From positions 234,121-279,039 of the forward strand of contig NW_003106599.1 of assembly GCF_000003605.2 (NCBI RefSeq): DNA of 44,919 bases, given 5' to 3'. A program made the position numbers and the translations under genes. The notes under the pieces were generated by a model, which was given only the letters and a program-made list of their open reading frames with translations, was not told where the DNA came from and did not search any database. Positions within the stretch are counted from its first letter, which is position 1. Each line of letters begins with the position of its first letter. Source of the stretch: Saccoglossus kowalevskii (taxonomy: Eukaryota > Hemichordata > Enteropneusta > Harrimaniidae). Shown piece after piece: positions 2,693-41,845 of the stretch.

Positions 2693-2706
2693 TGACCTAT
2701 GGGTCA
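2693..2706. promoter_or_regulatory. Everted nuclear-receptor half-sites (ER2-like) in the Hox5 promoter
   Basis: TGACCT-AT-GGGTCA is a pair of RGGTCA half-sites in everted orientation with a 2-bp spacer, about 96-109 bp upstream of the predicted Hox5 start site. RGGTCA is the core bound by RAR/RXR, COUP-TF, HNF4 and related receptors. Everted repeats are used less often than direct repeats, and ER2 is not a classic retinoic-acid element. The call is a motif match only. Confidence 0.35.
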
Positions 2707-2804: not shown

Positions 2805-2884
2805 GTAATACATCAACGGTACGACCATCATCATCGACATTGCAGTAATTCAGCAGCCACAAATCAAGCTAATAAAGAAGACAA

Positions 2885-5130
2885 ATGAGCTCGTATTTCG
2901 TAAATTCCTCGTTAACAAGCCGATATCAAAATGGCCAAGATTTCCAAGTACAGCACTACAATACGACAGGAAGATACAATCCGGCACCGGCAGCGGCAGC
3001 GGTGAACTACAACACCGGCTACCAATACTCAAATCATCATGACGCTAGCTACTATCCCAGCGATGCTACTACGGCGCTCCTGCAGCCCCAGCAGCCGACA
3101 ACAACAAATCGGCTCAGTCATACCCCGAGCTCGCACCCTTCATACTCCCTGACTGGGAACTTGGAAAACGTCACAATGTCGGCGAATAGCACGTCGTCAC
3201 CCTCTCCAAACTCCGACAGCAGTCTTTGCAGTGGAGTACACGGGAAGGAAAAAATCGGCACTGGCAGCACTCAGGATGGGGTTTACCCATGGATGCGTCG
3301 CATGCATATGAGCTCAGGTAAAAAAAAAATCTTTTTTTACAGTTACTAAAACTTGCTTTGGCATTGAGATCTTTATTGTACAATATGATCGTTTCATAAC
3401 ACCGTTACGTTACGACGGATAGTTGAAGTGCTGTGCAAACAGGGTATGTAGATTCCGAGTTAAAGATTACCACTCTGTCATTCACATGGCTATGTGCACT
3501 GCTCTTCAAAACGTCACCACGGATGGGCGAAAAGACAAATTATCCCGCCTGTCAAACTTACGCCAGACATACAATCCGTTTTTGGAGCAGAATAACTGCA
3601 AATACTATTCTTAATAATTATTGTCCAAAATAATTCCGTATAAACTAGGCTGAAAATTTTCCCGCGCAAACTGGATGACGAGAGGCGAAAGTTACGTTAT
3701 TACTACCGTGGGAGTTTTGTTAGCACATTAAGTTAATCATATGGTCATTCCGACTCCCTTCCATAGATTTATTATTTTGGAAGATTTATTTCAGCCGGCA
3801 ATGTTGCAACACAACACGTGGAACTCTTGCCAGTGTCGTTCTTGTCAAAATAATACATATTTTCATGGTTAGAACGAACGGAAAATTTCCTTCGCCAGTT
3901 TGTATCATCCTTCAATGGAAGACACCCGCCAGCGGTCATTTTCAACTTTAAAATTTGGTCAGCTTTGTTAGTATTTTTTTTAGTTTATCCGAAACGCAGA
4001 CGATAACAAAAGTACCATAAATGTTTAAAATATATTATAAATAAAGTGTTTGTTTTTGTTTGTTTGTAAATCATTCCGCCACTTATTATTTTCAACTCCT
4101 TTTTAATCAACCTAATTCACGGCAGACGGTTAATTGTCTTGCTTTATATCGTCTGCCGTAGGACGCTGATTCTAAGTTGGATGTTGTTAATGCACGACAA
4201 TCCGGTAACATCTCTTGCCTGGCAATTGTACACACAAATGATAACGGGGTGATAGATGGGCGATGTAGACGTATGCTAACATACACGTATTAACGATGCC
4301 GTATGTCTGCTACTTTGTTTCATTTTTGAACAGGACATGTACAATTTGATATTATTCGCTATTAAAAACAACACACAGTTGGTCGTCCGTTATGCATATA
4401 CCATTTTAAAATAGGAAGGCTTCAATGTACAGAGAATAACGACATTGTCTACGAAGATAATTGTATCTGGATATTGTAGTGTCATGATATCATGATGGAG
4501 TTCTGTTTTTAACAGAATATTTATTGTTGTCACTGAACTGTTTAATTATATATCCGACCAGTTGTGAAAACTAAGAAAGAAAACGCCTGTCTCTTTCGTA
4601 AATCATTTGCGTTCACGACGAGTAATGTTTTGTTTGCAGAAAAAAATAACATGTTTGCCGTTAATAAAACAGTCCATCATTCATATTAATTCTAAAAATA
4701 AGAGTCGTTTTCAGTATGTTTCAAATAATTACACTGACGTGTTCCAACATGGAGCCACAACGCGCCCATGCACAAAAGAATATGGCGTTTTTATTGACTT
4801 GTGTTTTGGTTCTGTCTTTTTTCACACACAGGTACGAATGGTATGGAGGCGAAGCGCAGTAGAACGGCATATACACGGTACCAGACGCTGGAGCTGGAGA
4901 AGGAATTCCATTTCAATCGCTACTTAACTCGACGTCGACGAATCGAGATCGCACACGCGCTAGGGTTGAGCGAACGACAGATCAAAATTTGGTTCCAGAA
5001 CCGACGAATGAAGTGGAAAAAGGAGCACAATGTAAAAAGCATATCACAAATCATGAACCCCGATACAAAGGACAATTCGTGCGAGACCGGTGGACTGTCA
5101 GCGACAGGGTCAGTAAGTCCAACCAACTGA
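2885..5130 (+). CDS. Hox5: Hox5 homeodomain transcription factor (Scr/Hox5 group), two exons
   Basis: This is a nuclear DNA-binding factor that patterns the anterior-posterior axis. Exon 1 is 2885-3317 and exon 2 is 4832-5130, joined across CAG|GTAAAA and a pyrimidine-rich ...CACACAG acceptor. The spliced frame is 732 nt, 243 residues. Residues 1-8 are MSSYFVNS, the N-terminal signature of Hox5-type proteins. An Ala/Tyr/Ser/Pro-rich linker follows. YPWM, the PBC/Exd cofactor contact, is at 134-137 ([12 protein letters not shown]). The homeodomain spans about residues 151-210 with [20 protein letters not shown] in the N-terminal arm and helix 1, and [15 protein letters not shown] in helix 3, including invariant W48, F49, N51 and R53. 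A 33-residue tail follows. The intron lies between the YPWM motif and the homeodomain, as is usual in Hox genes. The ATG has C at -3, a weak context, but the conserved MSSYFVNS fixes the start. The homeodomain alone could fit several middle-group Hox genes; the N-terminus and the downstream mir-10 settle it as Hox5. Confidence 0.95.
3318..4831 (+). other. Hox5: Hox5 intron
   Basis: A single 1,514-bp phase-1 intron splits the glycine codon 145 between the YPWM motif and the homeodomain. The donor is CAG|GTAAAAAA and the acceptor is TTTTTTCACACACAG|GT. The intron is A+T-rich, has one CACGTG at 3815 and shows no recognisable nested gene or mobile element. Exon 1 can be read through the donor for 11 more codons before a stop, which would give a truncated YPWM-only protein if the intron were retained. 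Confidence 0.9.
4849..5028 (+). other. Hox5: Homeobox of Hox5
   Basis: These 180 bp encode the 60-residue homeodomain of Hox5. Helix 1 has the Antp-class [10 protein letters not shown], helix 2 has [15 protein letters not shown], and helix 3 has the WFQNRR recognition core with Gln50 and Asn51. All positions expected for DNA contact are present and no indel is visible. This is the only homeobox I can find on either strand of the window. Confidence 0.95.
5104..5110 (+). promoter_or_regulatory. miR-10 seed match in Hox5 coding sequence
   Basis: ACAGGGT is the exact complement of miR-10 positions 2-8 (ACCCUGU). It lies in exon 2, 17 nt before the stop codon. miR-10 is encoded downstream on the same strand, and Hox mRNAs are known miR-10 targets in other animals. 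One 7-mer in a coding end is suggestive only; by base composition it would occur by chance roughly once in several tens of kilobases. Confidence 0.3.
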
Positions 5131-22371: not shown

Positions 22372-22385
22372 TGACCTCTTGACCC
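22372..22385 (-). promoter_or_regulatory. Perfect DR2 nuclear-receptor element (candidate RARE)
   Basis: The + strand reads TGACCT-CT-TGACCC, so the minus strand is GGGTCA-AG-AGGTCA. Both half-sites match RGGTCA exactly with a 2-bp spacer, the DR2 arrangement recognised by RAR/RXR heterodimers. DR2 and DR5 elements control several vertebrate Hox genes. The site lies about 6 kb upstream of mir-10. It is a motif match without binding data. Confidence 0.45.
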
Positions 22386-22545
22386 CATTCAGCCTCGCGC
22401 CTATTTGTCATTACAGTATCAGTACGATCGTTCTCTTGCTTGGCATCTGAAACAATTATGCCAATTTTCGTCGTATAATATTTTCATATACATGCTATTC
22501 GTGTGAGAGAGGAATTTGGGACGGAATAGATACCGCGGGGAAAGC

Positions 22546-22558
22546 CGCCATCTGCTGT
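22546..22558 (-). promoter_or_regulatory. CTCF-like site
   Basis: The minus strand reads ACAGCAGATGGCG, which fits the bilaterian CTCF core CCASYAGRKGGCR with one mismatch at the first base. It overlaps a CCGCCAT (YY1/PHO-type) motif and lies 160 bp from the DR2 element. CTCF sites partition Hox clusters in several animals. A YY1-only reading is equally possible. Confidence 0.3.
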
Positions 22559-22977
22559 AAACATTTCGCCGGAGACTGGCACATGTCAGAAAAGCTAAGG
22601 AGTGCGGACAATGCATGAAGGGTCTTGATTGAATTCCTGCCGTGACATCTCGCCCCCATCGTATCACAAGTTGTCAGTTGTTGCTTAGTTGTCATTACTT
22701 GTTACACTGTGCCAACCTACTGAAAGTGGACACGCGTCTTGCACCAGTGTATTCTCCATCTATCATCCATCATCATCATGTCACCGCCTCGTTCAACAAC
22801 CATTAATAATCCCCCCAACATTCTCACGTTGACAGCGGAAATTATTCGCAGGTTATATTGCTCAGGACGATCAGCGCTTTCTGATATGTGAGCTCACCCA
22901 AGGCCTGGAATTTCCGATGTCCCTGAAGTGACGACACGTCCACAATGTCTCATTCGTTTTATAAAACCTATACTTAA

Positions 22978-23102
22978 AGGGCGGCAGTTGTCGTGCCGCG
23001 TCCTGTTCGATATGGGACTCATAGCGACGCATACAACGAGTGTAAAATACATTGTTTATTTACATGAAATTCGAACACGCGCTGCGCGACTAACACCGCG
23101 CT
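22978..23102 (+). mobile_element. 125-bp TTAA-flanked MITE, copy 1
   Basis: The copy begins AGGGCGGCAG and ends CACCGCGCT, and is flanked on both sides by TTAA (22974-22977 and 23103-23106), consistent with a TTAA target-site duplication. The two ends are inverted repeats that remain alignable for roughly 38 bp, including a shared TGTTCGA block. It is too short to encode a transposase, so it is a non-autonomous miniature element. TTAA duplication is typical of piggyBac-like mobilisation, but the ends do not show a recognisable piggyBac CCC terminus, so the superfamily is open. The centre reads as an open frame, which I attribute to chance. Confidence 0.8.
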
Positions 23103-23106
23103 TTAA

Positions 23107-26100
23107 CAAGGTAGAGGAGAAAGTGTCTCAAAATCTTACACAATACAATAGCAAAAACGATAGCTTAACAAATTCGTGCGAGTCCACACGGCCAGCCACC
23201 GTATTGTTTAGATTTTCTCTGAAAGTATGGATAAAACCGCGTTATGATACAAGGATTTCCCAGACTGCTTTGCGAATGTGTTCTGTAATTCACCGCGACG
23301 GCCACCCTTGAACCATAGACTGAAAATCGTCTGTTAACAACAACTAATATATTATCAGTCGTTGCATCATATTAGGGAAAATAAGAAACATTTGTTGCTG
23401 CGAAAGTCAAATTTTGCCACTTATTTTCCCGATGTGAATAGACGTAGAAGCAATACTATGCAAAGTAGATAACTTGGCTATACCATAATGCAGTGCGATT
23501 CACCCACAAGCTGTAATAAGTAGTCTCGAAGGGAATTTGAAGTTCATTAAAATAACAATTTCTGACCGGTGATGGGGCAGAGTGGGTTAATAGCTAATGT
23601 ATAAATTAATTTGAAAACCAAGTACTTATTGTAATTACTACTAGTATATATTTATGGAGAAATTGATATTACTGGTTATTATTGTATTGAACTTGAAGAA
23701 TGTGTTATTTTTCTAAAAATCTTCTTTAATCGTTAACTTCAACATTTTTTTTCCGTATAATTTTTCGATATTTTATTTTAAAACAATAATAATAAAGAAA
23801 ATAATATTTCGTCCAGAATTAACAAACAATTATTGAAAAATATTCATGAAAAACAATTTTTGTCTTGAAAATGGTTGTCGTTCAGCGAGTTGAAGATAAA
23901 AAAAATGATTAATTAAATTTCTGCATAGTACAGTTTCAACAAAGCTGTGTGTATATGAACCAGGCTGTGTATACTTATGAATAATTGGTAACCTATCTTA
24001 CGATTTTTCCCGCCAAATGAAAAAACTCCTGATTGTGAATGAGGTGTTCAACATTAACTATTACAGTCACGTGTTTCTTCCGATCCGAGTACGATAAACA
24101 AAATACGAAGATTTGAACTCGTGTAATTATAAACTTCAACGGTATTTCTCATTTTTTGTCAACTTTAATGTCCTTGACACGCAATGAAATTTGTTGTTGG
24201 CGCTAACATCTCAACTGCAATGCCACATGGGAAAAATTAATCAAAAAGTTGACAAGCGTAGAGCGAGAAATACGCGACCTGACCCGTTATGATAGTCCAC
24301 CCCTGCGAATGACGGGAATGAACTTGGACTCATTTGTCAATTCTGGTGATGACAGACTCGTCAGAGTAATTAGACGGCGGGTTGCTGTACCATAAATTTA
24401 AAAAAAAACCGGTTTGTCGTTCGTCATTACACGATGCCATTGACCCTGCGATATTCACAGGTCAAACCATACGGCACGAGTCGCCATGTTAATTCCATTA
24501 CAACGCAACTTTTAGTTCATTATCGTGTTCGCCATATCTCAACCCTTCGACAGAGTTGAGAACTGTGACCTCGTTTCGTTCACCGAAGATTGCTCGGACA
24601 CCCTGGTATACTGCCACCAGTCAGCCATTTCTGCCTTTTGAGAAAACGATCCATTCTTTAATTTTGCCGGCGGTTTTTTTCAAGTTCGAGTAGAAACAGG
24701 TCGCTATCAAATATTAATCCTCACGCAATGACCATTTATCTCTAATTATCTATCTACTATTAATATTATTACCTCAGTACTTTGGATGTAGCTAGCTATC
24801 CGGGAAAGGCGGGAAAACACACACCGATTGGCAAGCGCCGTTCTTTTGTTAAAAAAAAAAAAAACGGCACACACATGACCGCCCTCCCGTGTCGAGTTGA
24901 CGCTGCCAAGAGAGTATATGGAATACAGATCAGGCTACCGTGACCTACGTGCATAGTATTCACAGACTACGCCAAACAAAATGGCGGCCACCAGTTTCCC
25001 GCGAGACAGATACAACTAACCCAACCTACAGTTCAGCTAGCAGCTCTTGTTACTTACCGTCTGCGCGTGTGTGTTCGCGTTGACGTCCTCTTCTCAAATC
25101 GACCCCGTTCAAGAATCCGAACTAAAATGAGCTAGAATAAATAATTTTTTTATCCTACACAAGATCGGTAATAAAATATAAATTATCATTTGACGTGTGT
25201 TGTGCAAACAGTTTGGCAAAAGTTTAACTTGGACTTGGTCATATGTTTATCTACCGTCTGCGATCGACTTGATACGAATTAATTTATTTCTTAAATTTCC
25301 ACAAAATATTTTTTACATTTGTATTTCTGTTTCAAGCACAGATTAATATTCGTCAAACTTTTTGGCGCGTGGGCGATTTTGTTATTTTTTCGCCAATGTA
25401 ATGTCTGTGTTTACTCAGGCCACCGATAGTGGCAGATGCGGTTACATTATGCAAATTAGGTGACCCGTGTCAATGATCGGTCCGAACTTGCCACACATCG
25501 CAGACAGTACAAAACGTACCAACAATCACACAGACTAAGAGGTCATTCTTTCGTTTTCTCAAGGAAATGTTTCCAACGACAACGGATCTCCTTTAATGGC
25601 AGCGTCGCATTCTCGTCTCGACACGTCTTAAATTCTCGTTAAGTTTTGTCTGTTTTATCGTCAATAATTCAGTTTTTTGGCAATTTTATGCTCTCCTGTC
25701 GAATCCGGAATTTACAGTTAACGATATGGAGCTTGTAAAACCAGTACCGCCTGCGATAAGGGGGTATTAAACTTTTCCGTTGCTAGGCCACGGATAAATG
25801 TCAATGTGTGCTTCACCCCAAGGTACTGCCTGTACCACCCTATGTCCCATCGCCGTTTTTATTCACATTCTTAAATAATTGTATTCAACTTGAACGTTTC
25901 TAAATACCAGAACCACTTAATATTCAATGTAAACAGCTAGTATGCAGAAGTATTAAAAAGGCGACAATAACAATTTATAAATATTTATGAATTGTTTTAT
26001 TTCAATAAGTGAATCACACTCGTAATAATCGCAACACGACAAAATGGCGGATTAACTACACAACTATGAGACCTAAATACAACAATTTTAAACTATTTTC

Positions 26101-28407
26101 GTTATCGGTTACACATGTTATCACGTCTTAAAATCGAAGATAAGAGATGTGACTGTGTATAACCGAATACGTCTTTTGTCTACAAATATTTTTACAACCG
26201 AATTATATGTCGTATTTCATCGCTTACCGACGTTTGATGTGACTGGGGCCTAGAGGGTGTCCCCTTGTCCCCAATATCGGTGGGGTTACTGAGCAAACAA
26301 GACTACAATTTATAACCAATGCACACTCATTGCAAAGCTTTAGATACAGCCTTGAAGCGATTTATAAATGAAATAGGACATTTGGTCGGCCCAAAGGTCG
26401 CGCTCGTAGCCGATTTATTTTATTTATAGCGTTGTTAGCAGTCCGGACCCGCAGTCGAAGCCCCGATCATCAGCCCGAACGCAGGTGTGCTGGCCTCCCG
26501 ATCAAGTCACCGCGATGCAGCTACGTTTTTTTATCTTTCTCAGGCGAAGATGTCTGATTGCTTCCTGCGATGGTCCACTAAGGCAGACGACCACTCCACA
26601 ACTGTTGATGTTTTGCTTGTGCCGCCAACTTGACAAGTTCGGGCTGCTGTTGATACGATGTGAGAGGTGACGAAGATACATAGTCGTTTGAACAGCTCTG
26701 CCACGCCTAGCATATTCTTCTTGATGCCCGGTAAACTCAATCAGGCATACTGACAGCGCATTGACGTAGTCTGTGTCGTATTGACACCGCTGTGAGATTT
26801 TGATTTGGTAATTGTACATCATTTTGCTTTCAAATTTGAAATTTCGTTGAAAAAACCTGACTATAGTAAAAGCGGGAATCTCCGCCGAAGCTGATCGTTT
26901 TCTTTTTCATTTCTAGCGTTTCAAAATGTAGTCTTATATGGTGCCTTTTATTATCCTAAAGCCCATTTTAACAATGATAAGTCCGTTGTGTCGAATAATT
27001 ACAGTTCGCAAAGCTGCAATTTCTAAAACGCGCCGAGATTGAAACGCGGGATTGACACACCCCGATTTGTTAACTGGAGTAGGGTTAGGACTTTCTATCT
27101 ACGAACGATGTGTGCATATACTAATGTAGTGCGGACGTGTGGAACGTGTCACCTTTATGACCCCTTAGCATAGCTGCCCTACATTGTATTTTGACATTGA
27201 AGCGGCAGTCGCATTTTATCAAAAAAAATATACAAAAAAGGGGAACAAAAAAAGTAGTCAATCCGTGTATATTCAATCGCATGTGTAAATATATTCCTGA
27301 ATTTGATAATAAATTAGTAGACGTACTATATGCAGGAGAAGGGGTGACAAAGCGACATTACGCGAATATATCAGTATAAAATAATTTATTATGATCAGGA
27401 ACCCTCAAATTTGTAAAAAAAAAAAAATATATGTATGTATTTCTGAATACGAGTTTCCATATTTCGCGTTCGCGTTTTTGTCCCGCGGACTGATACGCCG
27501 ACCAATGCCTCGGGCTTTGCGTATCTTGATCGACTCGGAAAACTGATGAAGGCGACTTCTGTCTTGACAAGGATTCCCAAACTGCCTCGATTTTGACCTG
27601 TAATGAGAACAATGCCGAATTAATTATGTGTGTTACCAATCTTTGACTACCTTCCCAACTAGCGATGCATGCATAGCAAGTCCCGTGGCAAACCAGATGC
27701 AATCGGCTAGCGATTCATTCATTAAATAAATTGTTTTTAATTATGAAAAGTACCAGTTTACGTACGCGGTCGCCGTTGCTGTTCGGATGCCCTGTTCTCG
27801 TGTGGATATTTCTCAGTTTCTACACAAACTTATATAACATTTCGGAAAAAAAATCTCTTGATAAGTCGACAGGGGCGATACAATGAATTTAATATTATCA
27901 TTTTTTGACGCAGTTTCGTGAGACATGGTGTCCACCCTTTGTATAGATAAACATTTCAAATTTCGAACTACATACTACCCACTCCCTGCTCGGATGATGC
28001 TTAACCATAAACCGTTCTTTGAGCAATAAAATAACCGCTGTGCATAGCTATCCCAACAAAATGGGGTCGGGCAAAAATGAACACTATAGTTATAACCTAC
28101 CAACTGTAAATTCATGCGTAATGTTTTTTGTACTTTACAATCTGTTTGCAAAATATTCGTGTTTCTGAATGTATGTTGCACTTATTGGACATTTTTTTTT
28201 TCTTTTTGCATTCTAAGTACGAATTGCAAACTTATCATAGTGCGCAATTCGGTGAAACAGTTAAACAGTTACATGCTGTTGAAGCGGGAGTTATTTGACA
28301 TAGACATTGAACAAAATTTTTAAATAAATGTATGTTTTGCACCAAAACGATGGCGGGAAAAAAATACGTCTTTTGTGCAACGAAGACGCCAGGTGATATA
28401 TCTCCAC
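23107..28407. other. Intergenic DNA upstream of mir-10
   Basis: I see no supportable gene. ATGGCGG occurs at 24981 (inside AAAATGGCGGC, a full YY1-type match), 26044 and 28350, and CACGTG at 24068. The primary mir-10 transcript probably starts somewhere here or further upstream, but no convincing promoter can be chosen by eye. Confidence 0.5.
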
Positions 28408-28480
28408 CAACCTCTACCCTGTAGATCCGAATTTGTGGTACGTACATTTTCACGAATTCGTTTCTACCGGTGACAGGTAG
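28408..28480 (+). ncRNA. mir-10: mir-10 microRNA precursor
   Basis: The hairpin carries the mature 5p arm at 28415-28437, beginning UACCCUGUAGAUCCG and matching the canonical bilaterian miR-10 over its full 23 nt as I know it. The opposite arm, about 28452-28473, begins ACGAAUUCGUUUCUACCGG and pairs with it: CGAAUUUGUG with CACGAAUUCG, and UAGA with UCUA. A loop of about 13 nt lies between. miR-10 post-transcriptionally represses Hox and other mRNAs. Its position downstream of Hox5 on the same strand is the ancestral bilaterian placement and supports both calls. The first base is U, as in chordate and protostome miR-10. Precursor edges are approximate. Confidence 0.96.
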
Positions 28481-29432
28481 CTGCGAGGACACAACAACAC
28501 CGAGGCCGCGGCCTAATTCGTCATCATAGTCCCGCCATTGTGATACGATGTGACACATCTTTTATCTTCTGTATTTACTAGCGTTATTCACTTTTTTTCA
28601 AGCGAATAATAATATGAATCTATATAACACAGTGGTGTAAGTTGTCGTTTGTGTGTACGTGTAGCCAGCGTTTCTGAACGCGTCGATGATTGGTAAAACG
28701 GACGGGTGTCAGACTAACACGATGCCCAAGGTGGGCGCAACATGCGACCGCGTTGTGTACTATTTCTTTAAAACAATAGATCGACTAAAAGGGGCAATAA
28801 AACAGTGACAATTATCATTACAATCGGAGCGCTAAACATCAAAGTGAACGGAGTGTCATTACCACTACCCTAGTTACTTTTTATTTGAAACGCACACGCC
28901 AAGGAAAGTCGCATTTATTTAACAGCTGCGTCGTCAACTAACTGTGTCTTCAGCTCACCTTGAAAATCGATCTTTGTGTGTGTTTTTTTACGGAAAAATC
29001 AATTTAAATGGAAAACAAATTCGGCAACGAGATATTAGCTTTGTACGCCTCATTCGGGCAGCGACTTTTCAAATAAAACACGCACATTTTGCCCGATTTC
29101 GATCGCGAAAGCAATTTTAAGCAAGTAAAATAATCTCTGTATTTTGTCGTTAACGAATACGTAATATTAACTAACTGCCGCTATCATTGTCATGCATGGA
29201 TGGCAATTTAAAATTGTTGCTGTTAGTTTCAAATGAGTCGAACATGTTATATCCCTGCTTGGCTTGCTTAAGTCGGAACTTTCCCGCCAATAAAGGCGCT
29301 TTGCATAGAGAGATACTCTAGCTATTCTCGATTTATATAGACATTTAACATTGACGATATTCCTCTGATTCGAATAAAATCGTGTATATACATAAATTGT
29401 CATTTATTTATTTATTTTAAAAAAGATAGAAC
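28481..29432. other. Intergenic DNA just downstream of mir-10
   Basis: I see no gene. CCGCCAT at 28532-28538 forms an inverted pair with ATGGCGG at 28350-28356 on the other side of the hairpin. The rest is A+T-rich single-copy sequence. A minus-strand open frame over mir-10 is a shadow. Confidence 0.5.
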
Positions 29433-29448
29433 GAGAGAGGGGGAGAGG

Positions 29449-29518
<70 letters not shown>
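29433..29518. repeat. (GA)n microsatellite
   Basis: An impure GA/GGGGA stretch runs into 34 uninterrupted GA units at 29451-29518. On the minus strand it reads as a Ser-Leu repeat, which is not a protein. GA tracts can bind GAGA-type factors in arthropods, but no such role is supported here. Confidence 0.95.
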
Positions 29519-29522
<4 letters not shown>

Positions 29523-30971
29523 TTCGTACTCGACACGACATAATGATGGGCTGCTACGGTATATCACAGTGTCAAATAACATTATATACATTGTCAGTGA
29601 CAACAGTTACCACACTATTGCGACAGTTTCAGCAGTCCTATCACATCACACTCCAGTCAGTTACACCTGTGTCGGCAAATATGCCGCCAACGAACCCATT
29701 TTCGTTCAAAACGGATGCAACATCCAATGTACCTAGTAAAATACCGACGGTTCGACAGAGTCAATAGTTGTATACGAAATTATACTACGAATTATTTTGT
29801 GGGGTTAAAATGTGAATTACAAAATGCAGAATTTGCAGTGTCGCCTTGTTCAAATTTGATAAATTCCTTGCCATGGAGACGGGGAGATTCGAAGGACGCA
29901 GGAAAACCCACACGTAAGAATCATGGTGTCGATCGCCTCAGCTATCTATCCATGTAGAACAGAACGTGGAAAACAGCTTTTGCAAATGTTGTGTCGGCTT
30001 CGAAGATGAAACACAAATGTTTTTTTTTTTCTGTTTTTTTTTTGTTTTTTTCAAGATGCAGTTTTTCTGTTTAACATGGTTTTTTCTCTACACATGCTTA
30101 CTGCCTCGCTTCATGGCCCACCATATTGTCTGCTTTCTGTGGCTGAGATCAACCCTCTCACAAATGGCTGTCTAATATCATACCCAGAATCGCTGTCATA
30201 TTTCACCACTTAAATGCGATTTTAAAATTTGGCTGATCGAGGTATTTTTTATAGAGTGAATTACGACATCACAGTTCGATAACAACACAATTTCGTTAGT
30301 TTAGTCAGGGGGGGGGGTGCAAGGCATACTTTGATGTTGACGTAGACCCGGCCTTGCAATGCTCACTATGCCGTGCAATGTTTTGAAACTGCGTTACCTG
30401 TATCTCGAGTGATAGATGTTGTTAGGACATATCCCTCGTTTCACAATTAAAGTGCGTATTTAAGTCACAGAGCGACGGGAGACGGTCCGATTTCGGGTAC
30501 AGAGTCGACAGGTGGAGAGCACAATTGTGGTGTACAGCGCACCCGAATTTGAATCAGTTCTAGACTGTTTGTAGGGTAACCCCGACTGATAAATGCTGGA
30601 CTAACTCGGACAAATATCAGAAGCCAGTTAAAAACAATAAATTTTACAAAGGGTCGAAGACGTCACAAGACGCCGGGTCAGTCCCCGACCGGCGGACCAG
30701 AGTCCGTCCGATAAATCTTCACCAACCTTGGAAACCTCAGAAATGCGCCTTTTCATTCAGCCCAAACCGACTCGCATTTTCACACGTATTTGTTAAAGTT
30801 GTTCTCGCAAATTGTACATTTTTTATTAGGTTTCGTTCGTTTGTTTAAGGTTTTATTGACGGGAAGAACTTGAATTATGTATGACGTCGACTGACGTGAA
30901 GGTGGTATTCTACATATTCAGAGTTAGTTGTATGTAGATTTGGTCGACATTTTCTCAGATAAAGGATGCAT

Positions 30972-30985
30972 TGACCCCGTGACCA
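30972..30985 (-). promoter_or_regulatory. Near-perfect DR2 element
   Basis: The + strand reads TGACCC-CG-TGACCA, or TGGTCA-CG-GGGTCA on the minus strand. One half-site is perfect and the other departs from RGGTCA only at its first base. It lies about 2.5 kb downstream of mir-10. A lone AGGTCA follows at 31017-31022. Confidence 0.3.
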
Positions 30986-32170
30986 GACAAGTAAACTGCG
31001 TACACAAATTCACCAAAGGTCATTTTTTCCTTCACGATTGTCGTCTGCTAAAATAACATGTATATTTCTGACGGCCTTAGCATAAAAAAGATGAAGATGT
31101 ATATATATACTTTTAGATTGCAAATAGAATATTCAAAAATGACAAATTTTTAAGTAAAAATATAACTGATATAAATAAAAACGTCAAAGAGTTTTTTTTT
31201 GTTTTTTTTTTTGGTGGAATTTGTTTCACTTCGTGAGTCTGGATCATACTAAGCCGGTCATGTCACTTACAAACTCATAAATTCAGCTTTGTTTATGTCG
31301 CGTTCAATTATCGGGCGGCAGACGACACTCAAAAACTAGAGCCACATAAATGTTCCCCGATTTTCCGATAGTGACGTGTTCTTGCTTCTTGCATACTAAT
31401 TAGTCCGTCTTTTTCATTTCATCCACCTCATCGAAGTATAATTACGGATTTAGCCTCACTTATGTCTGTCTCGGGGTCAACTCCAGTTGAAATCCGCTGT
31501 AAGTCGTAAAACTTTACGACCATCTCCTCAATGTTTTCACAATGATCGTATGTATGTTTGTTTGTTAACACATTCCTCAGGTAAACCAAAAAAAAAAAGA
31601 GAGCACGGGTGTGTGTATATCCCGTGTATCGTCCTCGTCCGAGAAATAACGGCATTTGGTTTTGAGAAAGTTGTCGAAAAAGTCGAAAATCTTGAATATG
31701 GTTTCTATAATGTATTCACAATTAACAATTCATGGATGGAGACAACCCATTCCTACTGATATGTTTTCTATATATATCCATAAACTTATCCTACTAGATT
31801 ACAATTTGCGATAGAAGCTACCAATTTGAATCCAGAGATGCCGCACCACGTCGAATCTCCCCCCACTTTCAATTATTTGTAAATAATTGTGTGCAATATA
31901 ATCAGAACAATGTTGAGTTTTGTTGGTTTTATTTATAGATAGTTGGCTCAGTCTGCGCACGCGCACTGGAGCAAGTTTTGCACGTCCATGGCGACGGGCT
32001 GCACTTGTGCGTTGACATCATATTTGCAGTTGCGTATTTCAAAAACATCGCAAGGAGAAATGAATGACTCTATATTTTTATACTGAAATGAAAGATGTGT
32101 GAGTGTGACATCGAGTGTTTGTTCGATGTCTGGCCTTGACACATGTGAGCTACTTCTCACTAAATTTTCT

Positions 32171-32194
32171 TCACGTGACGGGGTCACGGGGTCA
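32171..32194 (+). promoter_or_regulatory. TCACGTGA E-box abutting a perfect DR2 (candidate RARE)
   Basis: TCACGTGA (32171-32178) is followed two bases later by GGGTCA-CG-GGGTCA (32181-32194), two perfect RGGTCA half-sites with a 2-bp spacer. The arrangement arises from a tandem GGGGTCAC. DR2 is a standard RAR/RXR element. The site lies about 3.7 kb downstream of mir-10 and upstream of the expected Hox4. Binding is inferred, not shown. Confidence 0.45.
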
Positions 32195-33754
32195 CCGAAA
32201 CCAACATCGTGCAAACACATCGGATGATTTATAACATTTACACCTGTGTTTGTCGTCATAGTAACAACTATCCTCGACAGTTACCGAGGTGGCGCAGTTC
32301 ACAAAAAGTCTCAGGGATTTAGTTGTCGTGCTCCCCTTCGCGACAGGTGTGCCGGCATAGTATTGACGGGGGATTTTTCTCGGGGCGGGGGGGGGGGGGG
32401 CTATGACGTATCATTGTAAGACACGTGTGGCTGGAGAGGGCAGTCGTCATGTTTTTCCTGTTACAGAGTATTACCCGGCGTAACACCCTTTTATGTAACA
32501 AAAACGTAAATTTTTATTAAGTGAAAGTTCTTTTTTCATCGGTTCTCATTATGAATATGTGCACGTTCTTGTTGTTATGGAAACACGACAGTACATGTCA
32601 TTCACAGCAAAATGCGTGACCACTTTGATCTTTTGGTATTATATTTATTTATTTTTTTTTTTTATTAGACGCATAAAATCCTTAGGAAAGGATAAAAAGG
32701 GTCTTACAGAAAGAAATTAAAAAACTACAATCTAAAAATAAAAACAAAAAATAAAAACTTTTCTAAAAATATAAAACAAATCAAAAACAATAAAGACAAT
32801 TTGCAGTCAATGATGAATATAGAATATAGAATGAACACACAATGTAGCCTAATACACTGATAGTTGTTGCTGTTTTGTTCCATAGCTGTTTTTTTTAGGA
32901 AGACAGCTAAGGCTGGTGCTAGAGTATGGTTTCCCCGAATCAAAATGAATTTATTCTGACTATTTTCTTTATCAAAATTTGGAACTTTATTTTGTGCTGT
33001 CAGGAATAATTCGTCTCTATGGTGATTGTAAGCTGGACATTACATTACAAAATGTTGATCATCCTCATTAAGACGACGATGTTCGGACGGTAGATGATTA
33101 TGGTGCGAGCCTGTTTTTGTTGGTTGGGTGGTTTCTTTTTTTTTGTTGAAGTGTTTGTGGTAATTATATACAGTATATATATCTTCAATCATTATCGAGA
33201 TTCTCGTTGAATAGATCCAATCTTTCTTGAATATAGGTTGTTATCGTCGGCGTTTCTCCGTTCGATTTAAACTCGAACTTTGTTTGACTAATTTGCGGTT
33301 TCAGATATTTTTAAATTATGACTAACAATGTATTGTACCTCATTCCCTCATTGCCTTCCCGAAACACCAGATCCAAATAATATTTTAAATTAATCTGTTT
33401 CGCTGTCAATAGTATATTTACAAATTTCTTGATATTCGAGGAAAACAATTGTTGAGAAATCAAACATTTGTTCTTTGAAAAACGAATATTTAGGCCCGAA
33501 TAATTTAAGATGATATCATTTTGACAACACGCCGCACGAGGGCGCTATTATAAATATGGACAACCTGGCACTACATACATACACTCGCCCAATGGTGGTG
33601 ACATATTACGGGCTGCCCCGAGGCGGACGGGAAATGTTTAATTTACAGTAACCAGTTCCGCTCAGTCGCCATACAGACATCGCTATTAAAATACAAAAAC
33701 TACAAAAGTACATTTCACGGTCAAAAAGACTACTATTTTTTTATTCAAAGAAAG

Positions 33755-34198: not shown

Positions 34199-34679
34199 CA
34201 CGATATACACGATGTCATGTTGTGTTTCTCCACGCACCACATGGAACATGTGATGGAAATGATGGAAATGCTTCAAAGAACCGATAAAATGACGACCAGT
34301 GCTCTAATTATCACTAATACTGTCTCCGTCGATTTGTGGGGGGGGGGGGCATAAATATAATGACTCTCAGTAAAATATGACGTCATCTAATACAAAAATC
34401 GAAAACGGATCGAAAAAAATTTTGTAAATATAATCTAAAACGTCAGTGTTTTTGTTTACGTGCTGGATAACGTATTCCACTTTCTGCTAAGAATGTAATT
34501 TGTATGTTGATAACAGAACAAAAGTCTGTTTCCACACACACTTGTTATCTAACTACATCGATATGTATAACGTTGCTTACAGTCCACATGATGTACATTC
34601 CCCAAATTATATTTGAATCAATTATTTTTCAACTCTACTCAAAACTACACATAAGGAAATAAAGAATAGTAACATTTAA
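34199..34679. other. Short intergenic segment
   Basis: I see no gene or recognisable element apart from a poly-G run near 34337. It ends at the second miniature transposon. Confidence 0.5.
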
Positions 34680-34804
34680 AGGGCGGCAGTCGTCGTGCCG
34701 CGTCATGTTCGATATGGGACTCATAGCGACGTATACAACGCGTGTAAAATACATTGTTTGTTTACATGAAATTCGAACACGCGCTGCGCGACGATAACTG
34801 CGCT
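34680..34804 (+). mobile_element. 125-bp TTAA-flanked MITE, copy 2
   Basis: Same length and orientation as the copy at 22978, flanked by TTAA at 34676-34679 and 34805-34808. This copy has GCGCGACGATAACTGCGCT at its right end, which pairs slightly better with the left end (GTCGTCG block). It differs from the other copies at a handful of positions, and its internal frame is broken by TAA near the right end. Confidence 0.85.
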
Positions 34805-34808
34805 TTAA

Positions 34809-36739
34809 ACAAATCCAGGATATTATTAGTTACTCTAGATACTGTATGACTGAAGGCGCATTAACTGCGTTTGCCGCCATTTTTTCATATTTTTAATCTA
34901 ATATTTAGTAATCTGTTACCCATATTTGACCTTTGACACGCCAAATGAAAAGAAACATCGTGGTGTGTCGTATACCATGGCTTGTATTCATGATTATAAT
35001 ATGCAAATAGCTAACAAATATGATTTTGGGTTGACAAGCCAAGAAAGAATGTCCCATTTTTTTTACCTCATCCGAGTTCACAGGTCATAGGTCAAATACA
35101 TAGTTGAAATCGAAAGTTGTATTGTTTGTAGTCTAGAGGTCATGATTCACTAACAATGACATTTTCTCAGTTATTTACTAACCCCCCTCCCCCCGTAACA
35201 TTTCAAGTAGGATATCAACTAAGTTGAAACATTTTTAAAAAAATACTAAACAAAAATGAAGTTAAAAAGAAAAATTATTGCTGGTATATGGAGGCAAAAA
35301 CACCCCCCCAATAAAGTACCCGGATGTGTGACCTTTATGGACTATACTGATCAACAGAATGTTCCGTACCAGTCCCGATGTCATTCAGTGTGCTATCAAC
35401 CGTGAAACCACATACCGCGTCTACAATGTGAGATATTATTATTATTGTTCACAAAAAATAAAAAAAAACGTTGATACACATAAATGGCGGACATGCTAAT
35501 GTTATTATGACTCACATTTCCCTTGCACGAAACTGAAAATTTGCGATTGAAATGACCCCGCCCTTTTTGTCAGTTAACACGTGAACGCCTATGTATTGAT
35601 CACGTTGTCTGTTAAACAAATAAATTATGAAAAAAATATGTGCAAAATAGTGCACAACCAATTTATAGAAAAACGCTTACAGCATTCTGTAATTGACGAG
35701 CTCAAAATAGAGTGGACGTTCGGAATGGTTATCAGAAACACACGCGGATGGTTAACATTTCTAGCACATTCAATCCCGATGTAATTTAGAGGAAATGGTT
35801 GTCTTCTAGTTAACAGACACGTGACACCTGTTTCAACCCAGCTGCTCTATATTCGTGGTTTGTTCAAATAGCTGGGCTTCAGTGCAGTCAACATTTTATC
35901 TGATTGACAAAGCCTCCAGCCATTAGCCAATCACATTTTGAGATCAAATGACGTCACAGACAGGTGCCATTCTTGTGGTTCATACTTAGTTATTTGCGAC
36001 AGTAAAAGAGTAATGTAAATAATTATTTTTATTTGTTTGTCTATGCTGGATAACTTGGCAACGCTATGCCTGAGACTAAAAAAGATCAGCGCTAATGCGC
36101 ATGGGCTTCGAATTTTTGGTACATACTATAAATTCGTGAAAAAAAAACCGTCGGCATTTTTTACATTGGTTTCCATAGTGAAATTACGTCATCATATTTT
36201 GAAACTTTGCCTGTATATGGTTACTGAAAGGTGAATATTTTTTAGAATTCAAGTTGTCAAAACAATCGCGCATAACACCAATATTATAGCATATTCAAAG
36301 GAAATTCCACTCTCACAATGCATTGTCAATGGCAAGCCCAGAATTTATCTTAAACATAAAAATGGCTAAAATATGATTAAAATAATAAATTGTCAGCAAC
36401 CCTAAACAAGTTGGGGTCTATGATACTATAATATTTTTAAAAATGTTAGTTATAAATACAATAATGAGGGCCATTAATTTTGACAGTTTTGAAACCGATC
36501 AATCATGTTAGTTGTCATGGTAATGATATTGTCTCATTTCTCACATATTCCGCGCGGTTACTTGGGATGAACAGTATGTACAGTAACTGGAAGACTAAAC
36601 ATTTCGACGTCAAGAGATTAACAATAATAATAATAATAATTATGAAAATTATGAATTTAATTATGCAAAATTATGAATTTCGTAAAAAAAAAATAGTATA
36701 CTCACAATAATGCATAAAATTAAAAGGCGCTGCAAATAT
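34809..36739. other. Intergenic DNA with nuclear-receptor half-site cluster
   Basis: No gene can be supported. Notable motifs are CCGCCAT followed by TTTT at 34874 (full YY1-type match), several nuclear-receptor half-sites at 34927-35142, ATGGCGG at 35484 and CACGTG at 35578 and 35818. The remainder is A+T-rich. Confidence 0.5.
34927..35142. promoter_or_regulatory. Cluster of DR1-type nuclear-receptor sites
   Basis: TGACCT-T-TGACAC lies at 34927-34939, a DR1 on the minus strand with one imperfect half. At 35075-35094 there are three half-sites in a row, AGTTCA-C-AGGTCA-T-AGGTCA, each with 1-bp spacing. A lone AGGTCA follows at 35137. DR1 repeats are bound by RXR, HNF4, COUP-TF and PPAR-type receptors. 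Six half-sites in 216 bp is dense. Confidence 0.4.
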
Positions 36740-38434: not shown

Positions 38435-38937
38435 TGTGCTGTCACCTCTCAGCGTAGCGATCGATCGACCGTCTGAGAAGAAACGACTGCCTGCTCATCA
38501 ACGGTGTCGAAATCAGGGTTAAGCTAAGTTTGGCAGTCAGTCGAGTGTGGATTGTGTGTAGAGAATACGAGGTGACAGGCGCAGCTGCTCACACTGACTG
38601 ACAGAGAGGGCAGGAATGCTAGCGCAGCGTGACAAATTTGACAGCATTGGGCAGGTGTCACGTGATCCAATCATGTGACGCTTCAACAAGCAAACTTGCT
38701 TGAGATGTTCGGTGTGTACATTCTTGTGCACGCGCTGAAGAGCGGCTTGGTGACTGACAACAATTACTATTACGGTGTTGATTTCTACCACTCATGACTG
38801 TCTGGCACTTTCAAGTGTGAAATGTAAACTTTAAATTCAGAGGCAGTCTCAACAATGAATGTCGACCTCGAAGCCACGAAATATACGTTGTCAAATACGC
38901 CCCAAGATATAACGGTCGTTTTACCGATTTTTTGTAA
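38435..38937. other. Short intergenic segment
   Basis: No gene is visible. It contains GTCACGTGATC at 38657 (TCACGTGA E-box) and ends at the third miniature transposon. Confidence 0.5.
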
Positions 38938-39062
38938 AGGGCGGCAGTCGTCGCACCGCGTCCTGTTCGATATGGGACTCATAGCGACGTATACAACGCG
39001 TGTAAAATACATTGTTTATTTACATGAAATTCGAACACGCGCTGCGCGACTAACACCGCGCT
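38938..39062 (+). mobile_element. 125-bp TTAA-flanked MITE, copy 3
   Basis: Same length and orientation as the other copies. The right flank is TTAA (39063-39066); the left flank is GTAA (38934-38937), a one-base decay of the duplication. It is closest to the copy at 22978, sharing GCGACTAACACCGCGCT at the right end. Confidence 0.85.
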
Positions 39063-39066
39063 TTAA

Positions 39067-40967: not shown

Positions 40968-41716
40968 TTGCAGTGGCTGGGCAAAAAACAACACGTACTG
41001 CCCCTGGCTATTAAGATTCCTCGTCAGAAAACGATACATAAATCGTGCCTAGTTTTGAAAACATGGGTAATACTACTGACTGAGTATCACGCTATACGTC
41101 ACTTCCGTTATATGAACCAGGATGCACCCTGACGGTATTGCGAATAAAAGAATATTTTTTTAAAAAACTTTGACTAGATTCACTCCCTTTCATCTTAATC
41201 CGTATTATGCGTTTTATATTATATCACCCACTTAAAAAAATGTAAAACTTAAAATTGTTTTTATGGCAACCAATATCATATGCTAGTTTAACGATCGGAT
41301 GGAGTAGATGGAAGCCGCCGGTCTGGCACTGTGATATAGACAGTTGTTATCTTAATAGTTTGTAAATTAAATTGAAATTTAGAGTTTAATAATATCTACA
41401 TCAAGGTATCGTAGCACAAGTCTGTGTCTTACATTACAAATTAAGTTTCTATAAAATTACTCCACAACGTAAGCGTAATAAAATAATTTATGAATTGATC
41501 AATTTGATATTTACCATTATGCTTTTTTTGAAACTAAAAACGACGTGGATTCCACCACGTGCAAATATTTTTGAATAACCTGCGTGCTTCAGTGATGTCT
41601 TTCCAGTGAACTTTTGTAAACAGCAATGAGATTATTGAAGTAGACGTATAAAAAAACATAACTGACATGTCATTAATTATTTGCATAAAGAAAATAACAG
41701 AGACAAACTAAATTAA

Positions 41717-41841
41717 AAGGCGGCAGTCGTCACGCCTCGTCCTGTTCGATGTGGGACTCATAGCGACGTATACAACGCGTGTAAAATACATTGTTTATTT
41801 ACATGGAATTCGAACACGCGCTGCACGACGACCACCGCGCT
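41717..41841 (+). mobile_element. 125-bp TTAA-flanked MITE, copy 4
   Basis: Flanked by TTAA at 41713-41716 and 41842-41845, with the same length and orientation as the others. The left end is AAGGCGG instead of AGGGCGG. The right end has GCACGACGACCACCGCGCT, whose GACGAC block pairs with GTCGTC in the left end. Confidence 0.85.
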
Positions 41842-41845
41842 TTAA

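What the first reader, a model, noticed from the sequence alone, without database searches (positions are those of the whole stretch)
22372..32194. Two perfect DR2 elements bracket mir-10 in the Hox5-Hox4 interval
GGGTCA-AG-AGGTCA (minus strand, 22372-22385) and GGGTCA-CG-GGGTCA (plus strand, 32181-32194) are exact RGGTCA-N2-RGGTCA repeats. A third near-match lies at 30972-30985. With roughly 36-38% G+C, perfect DR2 sites should occur far less than once in 45 kb, yet two are present either side of mir-10. Vertebrate Hox genes are controlled by DR2/DR5 retinoic-acid elements, including around Hox4. Conservation of retinoic-acid input at this position in an invertebrate deuterostome would be notable.
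Basis: partly seen in the sequence, partly recalled or inferred. Interest (0 to 1): 0.7.

Follow-up and report, generated by a model that had tools for sequence, protein, structure and literature searches.

The report
Two retinoic-type DR2 sites near mir-10
Two short DNA sites that a vitamin-A (retinoic acid) receptor could bind really do flank the mir-10 gene in this animal's Hox cluster and are rare in its genome, but nothing yet shows that they work.

Summary
GGGTCAAGAGGTCA (22372-22385, minus) and GGGTCACGGGGTCA (32181-32194, plus) are the only perfect RGGTCA-N2-RGGTCA repeats in the window, 6.0 kb before and 3.7 kb after mir-10. The genome (572 Mb) holds 517 perfect DR2, so 0.041 are expected per window; two gives a nominal P of 8e-4. 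That P is optimistic: the pair was picked after the fact, and DR2s cluster in this genome (among the first 100 listed, 5 consecutive pairs lie within 9.81 kb, this one included).

Two points need correction. No Hox4 was found: the next homeobox found 3' is 92 kb from the Hox5 one and looks Hox3-like. The third site (30972) is within chance.

The genome encodes RAR and RXR, so a reader exists. Conservation could not be tested: no relative is held. In mouse at least 150,000 good DR2/DR5 matches are unbound, and most predicted amphioxus RAREs were not conserved (passages). Verdict: probably background matches (0.55), with a minority chance (0.23) of functional RAREs.

The parts
22372..22385 (-). 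perfect DR2 GGGTCA-AG-AGGTCA
   Evidence: no repeat found around it inside the window. The genome-wide check of its flank did not complete.
32181..32194 (+). perfect DR2 GGGTCA-CG-GGGTCA; also a perfect 8-base tandem duplication (CGGGGTCA twice) beside a CACGTG at 32172
   Evidence: the 251 bp 32060-32310 gave one match in the genome, itself
28408..28481 (+). mir-10 precursor
   Evidence: Rfam RF00104, 52.3 bits, gathering score 47.5
2876..3349 (+). open frame holding the Hox5 first exon (MSSYFVN... YPWM)
   Evidence: motif reading recalled; no Pfam match
4837..5040 (+). Hox5/Scr-class homeodomain
   Evidence: PF00046 E=9.1e-25; best solved match is Sex combs reduced, 119.1 bits; C132:238957-239160
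35075..35094 (+). triple half-site AGTTCA-C-AGGTCA-T-AGGTCA (two overlapping DR1), not mentioned in the finding
31474..31490 (+). DR5-like GGGTCA-ACTCC-AGTTGA (second half-site imperfect)
2693..2706 (+). everted repeat TGACCT-AT-GGGTCA (ER2) upstream of the Hox5 first-exon frame

Best explanation
The two DR2 repeats are real sequence but most likely background. They are two of 517 perfect DR2 in this genome and happen to lie 9.8 kb apart around mir-10. The 32181 copy may have arisen by local duplication of the 8-mer CGGGGTCA (inferred). Neither has a shown regulatory role, though RAR/RXR could bind them (inferred from the consensus).
For: DR2 occurs 517 times in the genome. Of the first 100 places listed, 6 consecutive pairs fall within 45 kb (about 4 expected) and 5 within 9.81 kb (about 0.9 expected), this pair counted in both, so close DR2 pairs are commoner than Poisson and the nominal P is optimistic. 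Both exact 14-mers recur: GGGTCACGGGGTCA at 3 and GGGTCAAGAGGTCA at 1 of the other 98 listed places (counted by eye). The 32181 site is a perfect tandem 8-mer. Half-sites are not unusually clustered round either site: 6 lie in 30675-32194, while the window's maximum in 1.6 kb is 7, P 0.32. No perfect DR5 is on C132 (the first 100 of 546 places run in contig order past C132). In mouse at least 150,000 high-similarity DR2/DR5 matches show no RAR binding (passage); most predicted amphioxus RAREs were not conserved between two species (passage).
Against: Local DR2 density is about 50 times the genome mean (nominal P 8e-4). The contig has 3 perfect DR2 against 0.30 expected (P 3.8e-3; 1.4e-2 with 38% N). 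Half-sites are 1.47 times as dense here as in C132:1-200000 (Poisson P 0.0045 with the background rate taken as known; Mann-Whitney P 0.009 on 8 and 23 5-kb bins), and the window is also above 15 homeobox loci off C132 and the flanks of 8 other DR2 (12.0 against 7.9 and 8.9 per 10 kb). Against the mean of its permuted motifs RGGTCA is 2.0-fold in the window but 1.3-fold in C132:1-200000. Yet 22 of 360 permuted motifs reach a window/contig ratio of 1.47. The flank of 32181 is single-copy.
Confidence: 0.55

Rival explanations
1. One or both sites are functional retinoic acid response elements: RAR/RXR binds the DR2 and, with RA, changes transcription of Hox5, mir-10 or the neighbouring 3' Hox gene, as the RAREs in the mouse Hoxb4-Hoxb5 region do.
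For: Perfect RAR/RXR consensus; local excess over the genome; RAR and RXR DNA-binding exons are present; mouse DE, B4U and ENE RAREs act in a 15-kb region with Hoxb4, Hoxb5 and mir10a (passage); amphioxus RAR/RXR binds a DR2 in vitro (passage).
Against: No conservation or binding data; no perfect DR5 on the contig; no Hox4 found; no reported RA control of Hox genes in extant echinoderms as of a 2022 review (passage); the sites lie 9.8 kb apart without an unusual half-site cluster.
Confidence: 0.23
2. The sites are bound by other nuclear receptors that use close direct repeats (COUP-TF, HNF4, TR2/4, RXR dimers; recalled), and the window carries a modest general nuclear-receptor input rather than RA input.
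For: Among 20 of 40 nuclear-receptor stretches read, COUP-TF-like, HNF4-like and TR2/4-like DNA-binding domains are present (names recalled). The tightest half-site group in the window is 34927-35553 with 6 half-sites and a triple DR1. Half-site density is 1.47 times that of C132:1-200000.
Against: The 35-kb group is marginal (scan P 0.049 at 700 bp, the lowest of 4 sizes tried). Perfect DR1 is common even outside tandem arrays: by eye 49 DR1 against 10 DR2 on C1-C96, so a DR1 is weak evidence.
Confidence: 0.18
3. The sites ride on transposable or satellite DNA that carries DR repeats.
For: DR1 AGGTCATAGGTCA occurs in long tandem arrays of about 945 bp on C74 and C113, and DR5 in arrays on C50 and C689.
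Against: The 251 bp round 32181 match only themselves in the genome. No repeat round either site inside the window. The 22372 flank was not tested genome-wide, because that search did not complete.
Confidence: 0.04

Closest known systems
Mouse DE, B4U and ENE RAREs in the Hoxb4-Hoxb5-mir10a region
   Same: Central Hox cluster near mir-10; retinoid-receptor elements (passages).
   Different: Those are called conserved and were tested by mutation, with RAR occupancy in the Hoxb4-Hoxb5 interval; that they are DR5-type is my recollection. Here only sequence matches exist, 9.8 kb apart, with no Hox4 found.
Amphioxus predicted RAREs near Hox6 (one DR2, three DR5)
   Same: Motif predictions beside central Hox genes in an invertebrate deuterostome (passages).
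   Different: Those were kept because they are conserved between two amphioxus species; that filter could not be applied here.
Sea urchin putative DR5 upstream of hox1 and DR2 upstream of cyp26
   Same: RARE-like repeats in an echinoderm whose recognition by RAR/RXR is unknown (passages).
   Different: Other genes, and the cyp26 DR2 has AGTTCA half-sites.

Membership tests
RAR/RXR retinoic acid response element (DR2 type) | two RGKTCA half-sites in direct repeat with a 2-base spacer | tested here: met
   both sites perfect; consensus as given in passages
RAR/RXR retinoic acid response element (DR2 type) | cognate receptors in the genome | tested here: met
   RAR second-finger exon on C4723 (its five best solved matches are RARs, best 88.0 bits); RXR exon on C372 (best match RXR-alpha, 122.7 bits). 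20 of 40 nuclear-receptor stretches were read; only DNA-binding exons.
RAR/RXR retinoic acid response element (DR2 type) | more frequent at the locus than in the genome | tested here: inconclusive
   nominal P 8e-4, but chosen after the fact and DR2s cluster in this genome
RAR/RXR retinoic acid response element (DR2 type) | conservation in related species | not testable with these tools
RAR/RXR retinoic acid response element (DR2 type) | occupancy by RAR/RXR and RA response | not testable with these tools
   needs experiment
Hoxb4-Hoxb5-type shared RARE enhancer | lies between Hox5 and Hox4 | tested here: inconclusive
   no Hox4-like homeodomain among 39 matches (20 loci read; the other 19 score 54.3 bits or less); the next homeobox found 3' is Hox3-like. 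N runs and unread stretches leave room for a missed gene.

The most novel reading that the evidence does not exclude
A non-chordate deuterostome keeps direct retinoic-acid input into the central Hox cluster through a DR2 pair around mir-10, so that RA control of Hox genes predates chordates and could persist in an animal whose assembled Hox cluster shows no Hox4.
Probability: 0.08. Interest if true: 0.75.

Novelty: new member of a known kind. Interest (0 to 1): 0.27.

Why it matters
Whether retinoic acid controlled Hox genes before chordates is open; [quoted passage not shown] Two exact candidate sites in a genome that has RAR and RXR make the question testable with one species comparison or one occupancy assay. 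If that test is negative, the pair is an ordinary motif coincidence.

Tried and rejected
The third near-match (30972) as part of a DR2 cluster: rejected, within chance. Shared descent of 30972 and 32181: rejected, only 13 bases align, E 0.94.

A dispersed repeat carrying the 32181 site: rejected. The same check for 22372 was asked 11 times and never answered.

The open frame antisense to 32181 (31948-32280, minus): no Pfam family, not pursued.

The half-site excess of the window: not dismissed. RGGTCA runs at 12.0 per 10 kb here, against 8.19 in C132:1-200000, 7.85 in 15 homeobox loci off C132 and 8.86 in the flanks of 8 other DR2. It is modest, and 22 of 360 permuted motifs show as large a ratio. 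One dense 5-kb bin of C132 (16 half-sites) owes 8 of them to a 28-bp minisatellite.

A neutral-spacing control (DR7 genome-wide) was asked 7 times and never answered, so DR2 (517) is compared only with DR5 (546) and DR1 (5135, inflated by tandem arrays). Comparison DNA: one 22-base mir-10 pattern in two collections, nothing found; the search for related loci was not tried.

A slip put right: one search read three minus-strand loci (L014, L017, L018) on the wrong strand; one search read them correctly.

Full report
What is there. The window carries a Hox5/Scr-class gene (first-exon frame 2876-3349, homeodomain 4837-5040) and one mir-10 precursor (28408-28481, Rfam 52.3 bits against a gathering score of 47.5). 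RGGTCANNRGGTCA matches twice and only twice: 22372-22385 minus, GGGTCAAGAGGTCA, and 32181-32194 plus, GGGTCACGGGGTCA. They lie 6.0 kb before and 3.7 kb after mir-10.

Chance within the window. Dinucleotide shuffles give 0.03 expected and 0 of 100 reach two. RGGTCA half-sites occur 54 times where first- to third-order models predict about 27. A fifth-order model that keeps the 54 gives DR2>=2 in 1 of 400 runs, and two at any one spacing DR0-DR8 in 4 of 400. Among 360 orderings of the same letters only RGGTCA has two DR2; 5 of 360, RGGTCA included, have two at some spacing.

Chance within the genome. The window is C132:234121-279039 of a 572,110,611-base assembly with 233 + 284 = 517 perfect DR2; the same pattern read backwards gives 134. 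That is 0.90 per Mb, 0.041 per window, close to the shuffle value; nominal P 8e-4. With 38% N in the assembly (the share in C132:1-200000; the genome's own share is unknown) P would be 2.1e-3. The 100 places listed run in contig order past C132, so C132 has 3 perfect DR2 (83287, 256492, 266301) against 0.30 expected, P 3.8e-3 (1.4e-2 with 38% N). Among those 100 places 6 consecutive pairs lie within 45 kb (about 4 expected) and 5 within 9.81 kb (about 0.9 expected), this pair included. DR2s therefore cluster more than Poisson and these P values are optimistic. Both 14-mers recur elsewhere in the listing (3 and 1 places, by eye). The pair is unusual for a spot named in advance, less so in a genome, and it was named after seeing the sequence.

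Other half-site repeats. A triple DR1-type array lies at 35075-35094, an ER2 at 2693-2706 and an imperfect DR5 at 31474-31490. Half-sites are 1.47-fold denser here than in C132:1-200000: P 0.0045 by Poisson, 0.009 by Mann-Whitney on 8 window bins and the 23 contig bins with under 10% N. Against permuted motifs RGGTCA is 2.0-fold in the window and 1.3-fold in the contig part. But 22 of 360 permuted motifs show a ratio of 1.47 or more. Clustering is marginal: 6 half-sites at 34927-35553 (scan P 0.049 at 700 bp; the other three sizes give 0.22, 0.32 and 0.81), and 6 in 30675-32194 round the plus-strand DR2, below the window's maximum of 7 per 1.6 kb. Perfect DR5 occurs 546 times in the genome, none on C132. 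Perfect DR1 occurs 5135 times, with many of the listed places in tandem arrays (51 of the first 100, by eye).

Sequence context. The 251 bp round 32181 match only themselves in the genome. The site is a perfect doubling of CGGGGTCA, which a slippage event could make (inference). The 22372 flank has no repeat inside the window; its genome search did not complete.

Which animal and which interval. One search gave 39 homeodomain matches; its 20 cut-out loci were all read, the other 19 (54.3 bits or less) were not. On C132, all on the plus strand, come two Abd-B-class genes, one central gene, Hox5 and, 92 kb 3' of the Hox5 homeodomain, a gene that I read from memory as Hox3-like. Its best solved match is a chain labelled engrailed with two matched stretches (6m3d_C, 99.3 bits; I take it for an engineered construct, not checked), then Pdx1 (77.5) and Scr (74.3). 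Hox1- and Hox2-like genes are on C1423 and two posterior-class genes on C2346 (class names recalled). Four posterior-class genes fit an ambulacrarian (recalled); a review passage names ambulacrarian-specific posterior genes in hemichordates and says the sea urchin lacks a Hox4 member. No Hox4-like homeodomain was found. A 55.7-kb N run lies between the central gene and Hox5, and C132:279040-337294 was read only in the 3.2-kb locus L016, so a missed gene is possible. 'Hox5-Hox4 interval' is not established; 'between Hox5 and the next homeobox found, Hox3-like' is.

Can the sites be read? In principle. PF00105 gave 40 stretches; 20 were fetched and read. One is a RAR second-zinc-finger exon (C4723; its five best solved matches are RARs, best 88.0 bits), one an RXR DNA-binding exon (C372; best match RXR-alpha, 122.7 bits). 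COUP-TF-, HNF4- and TR2/4-like domains are there too (names recalled), so a DR2 need not mean retinoic acid.

What is known (passages seen, not whole papers). In mouse, conserved DE, B4U and ENE RAREs act in a 15-kb region with Hoxb4, Hoxb5 and mir10a (PMC10233718; PMC4510006). [quoted passage not shown] one DR2 and three DR5 near Hox6 and two DR1 in the Hox14 locus were kept (PMC3534614). [quoted passage not shown] PMC5247814). In mouse at least 150,000 high-similarity DR2/DR5 matches show no RAR binding (PMC3091300). A lamprey paper places the coupling of RA to Hox genes later, in the deuterostome lineage (PMC10879103). In nine library searches no listed title or abstract opening reports RAREs at this position in an ambulacrarian; several listings were cut (20 of 109, 15 of 23, 15 of 31, 12 of 18, 12 of 23), and the library lacks most subscription papers.

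Verdict. I hold background matches at 0.55, functional RARE at 0.23, other nuclear-receptor input at 0.18 and a repeat-borne site at 0.04. Shown: the sites, their rarity in this genome, the presence of RAR and RXR, the single-copy flank of one site. Inferred: everything about binding, ligand and target. 'New member of a known kind' applies only if it works, when it would be a RARE; membership is not shown.

Noticed in passing
G000 C74, C113, C124: Tandem arrays with a unit of about 945 bp, most units carrying AGGTCATAGGTCA (DR1), run for about 32 kb on C74 and 19 kb on C113 and inflate the genome's DR1 count.
   Followed up: no
window 22975-23106, 34677-34808, 38935-39066, 41714-41845: A dispersed repeat of about 132 bp in four copies; three are 91-96% identical to the first.
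   Followed up: no
window, 25 places (e.g. 180, 191, 305, 2738, 32172): CACGTG is frequent (5.6 per 10 kb), about as in C132:1-200000 (5.9) and 15 homeobox loci off C132 (5.5), but only 1.8 in the flanks of 8 other DR2 sites.
   Followed up: partly
L035 9705-9746 (C132:69705-69746): Three RGGTCA half-sites plus an overlapping imperfect DR1 within 42 bp, some 1.7 kb 5' of an Abd-B-class homeodomain exon; a tighter nuclear-receptor group than either DR2.
   Followed up: partly
L035 6489-6765 (C132:66489-66765): A 28-bp minisatellite of about 10 copies with 8 TGACCT half-sites.
   Followed up: yes
C132:112637-168308: A 55.7-kb run of N between the central Hox gene and Hox5; missing Hox genes may lie there.
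   Followed up: no
G000, listing: AGGTCAAAGGGTCA makes up about 22 of the first 100 perfect DR2 places (counted by eye), which suggests a repeat family or a favoured element.
   Followed up: no
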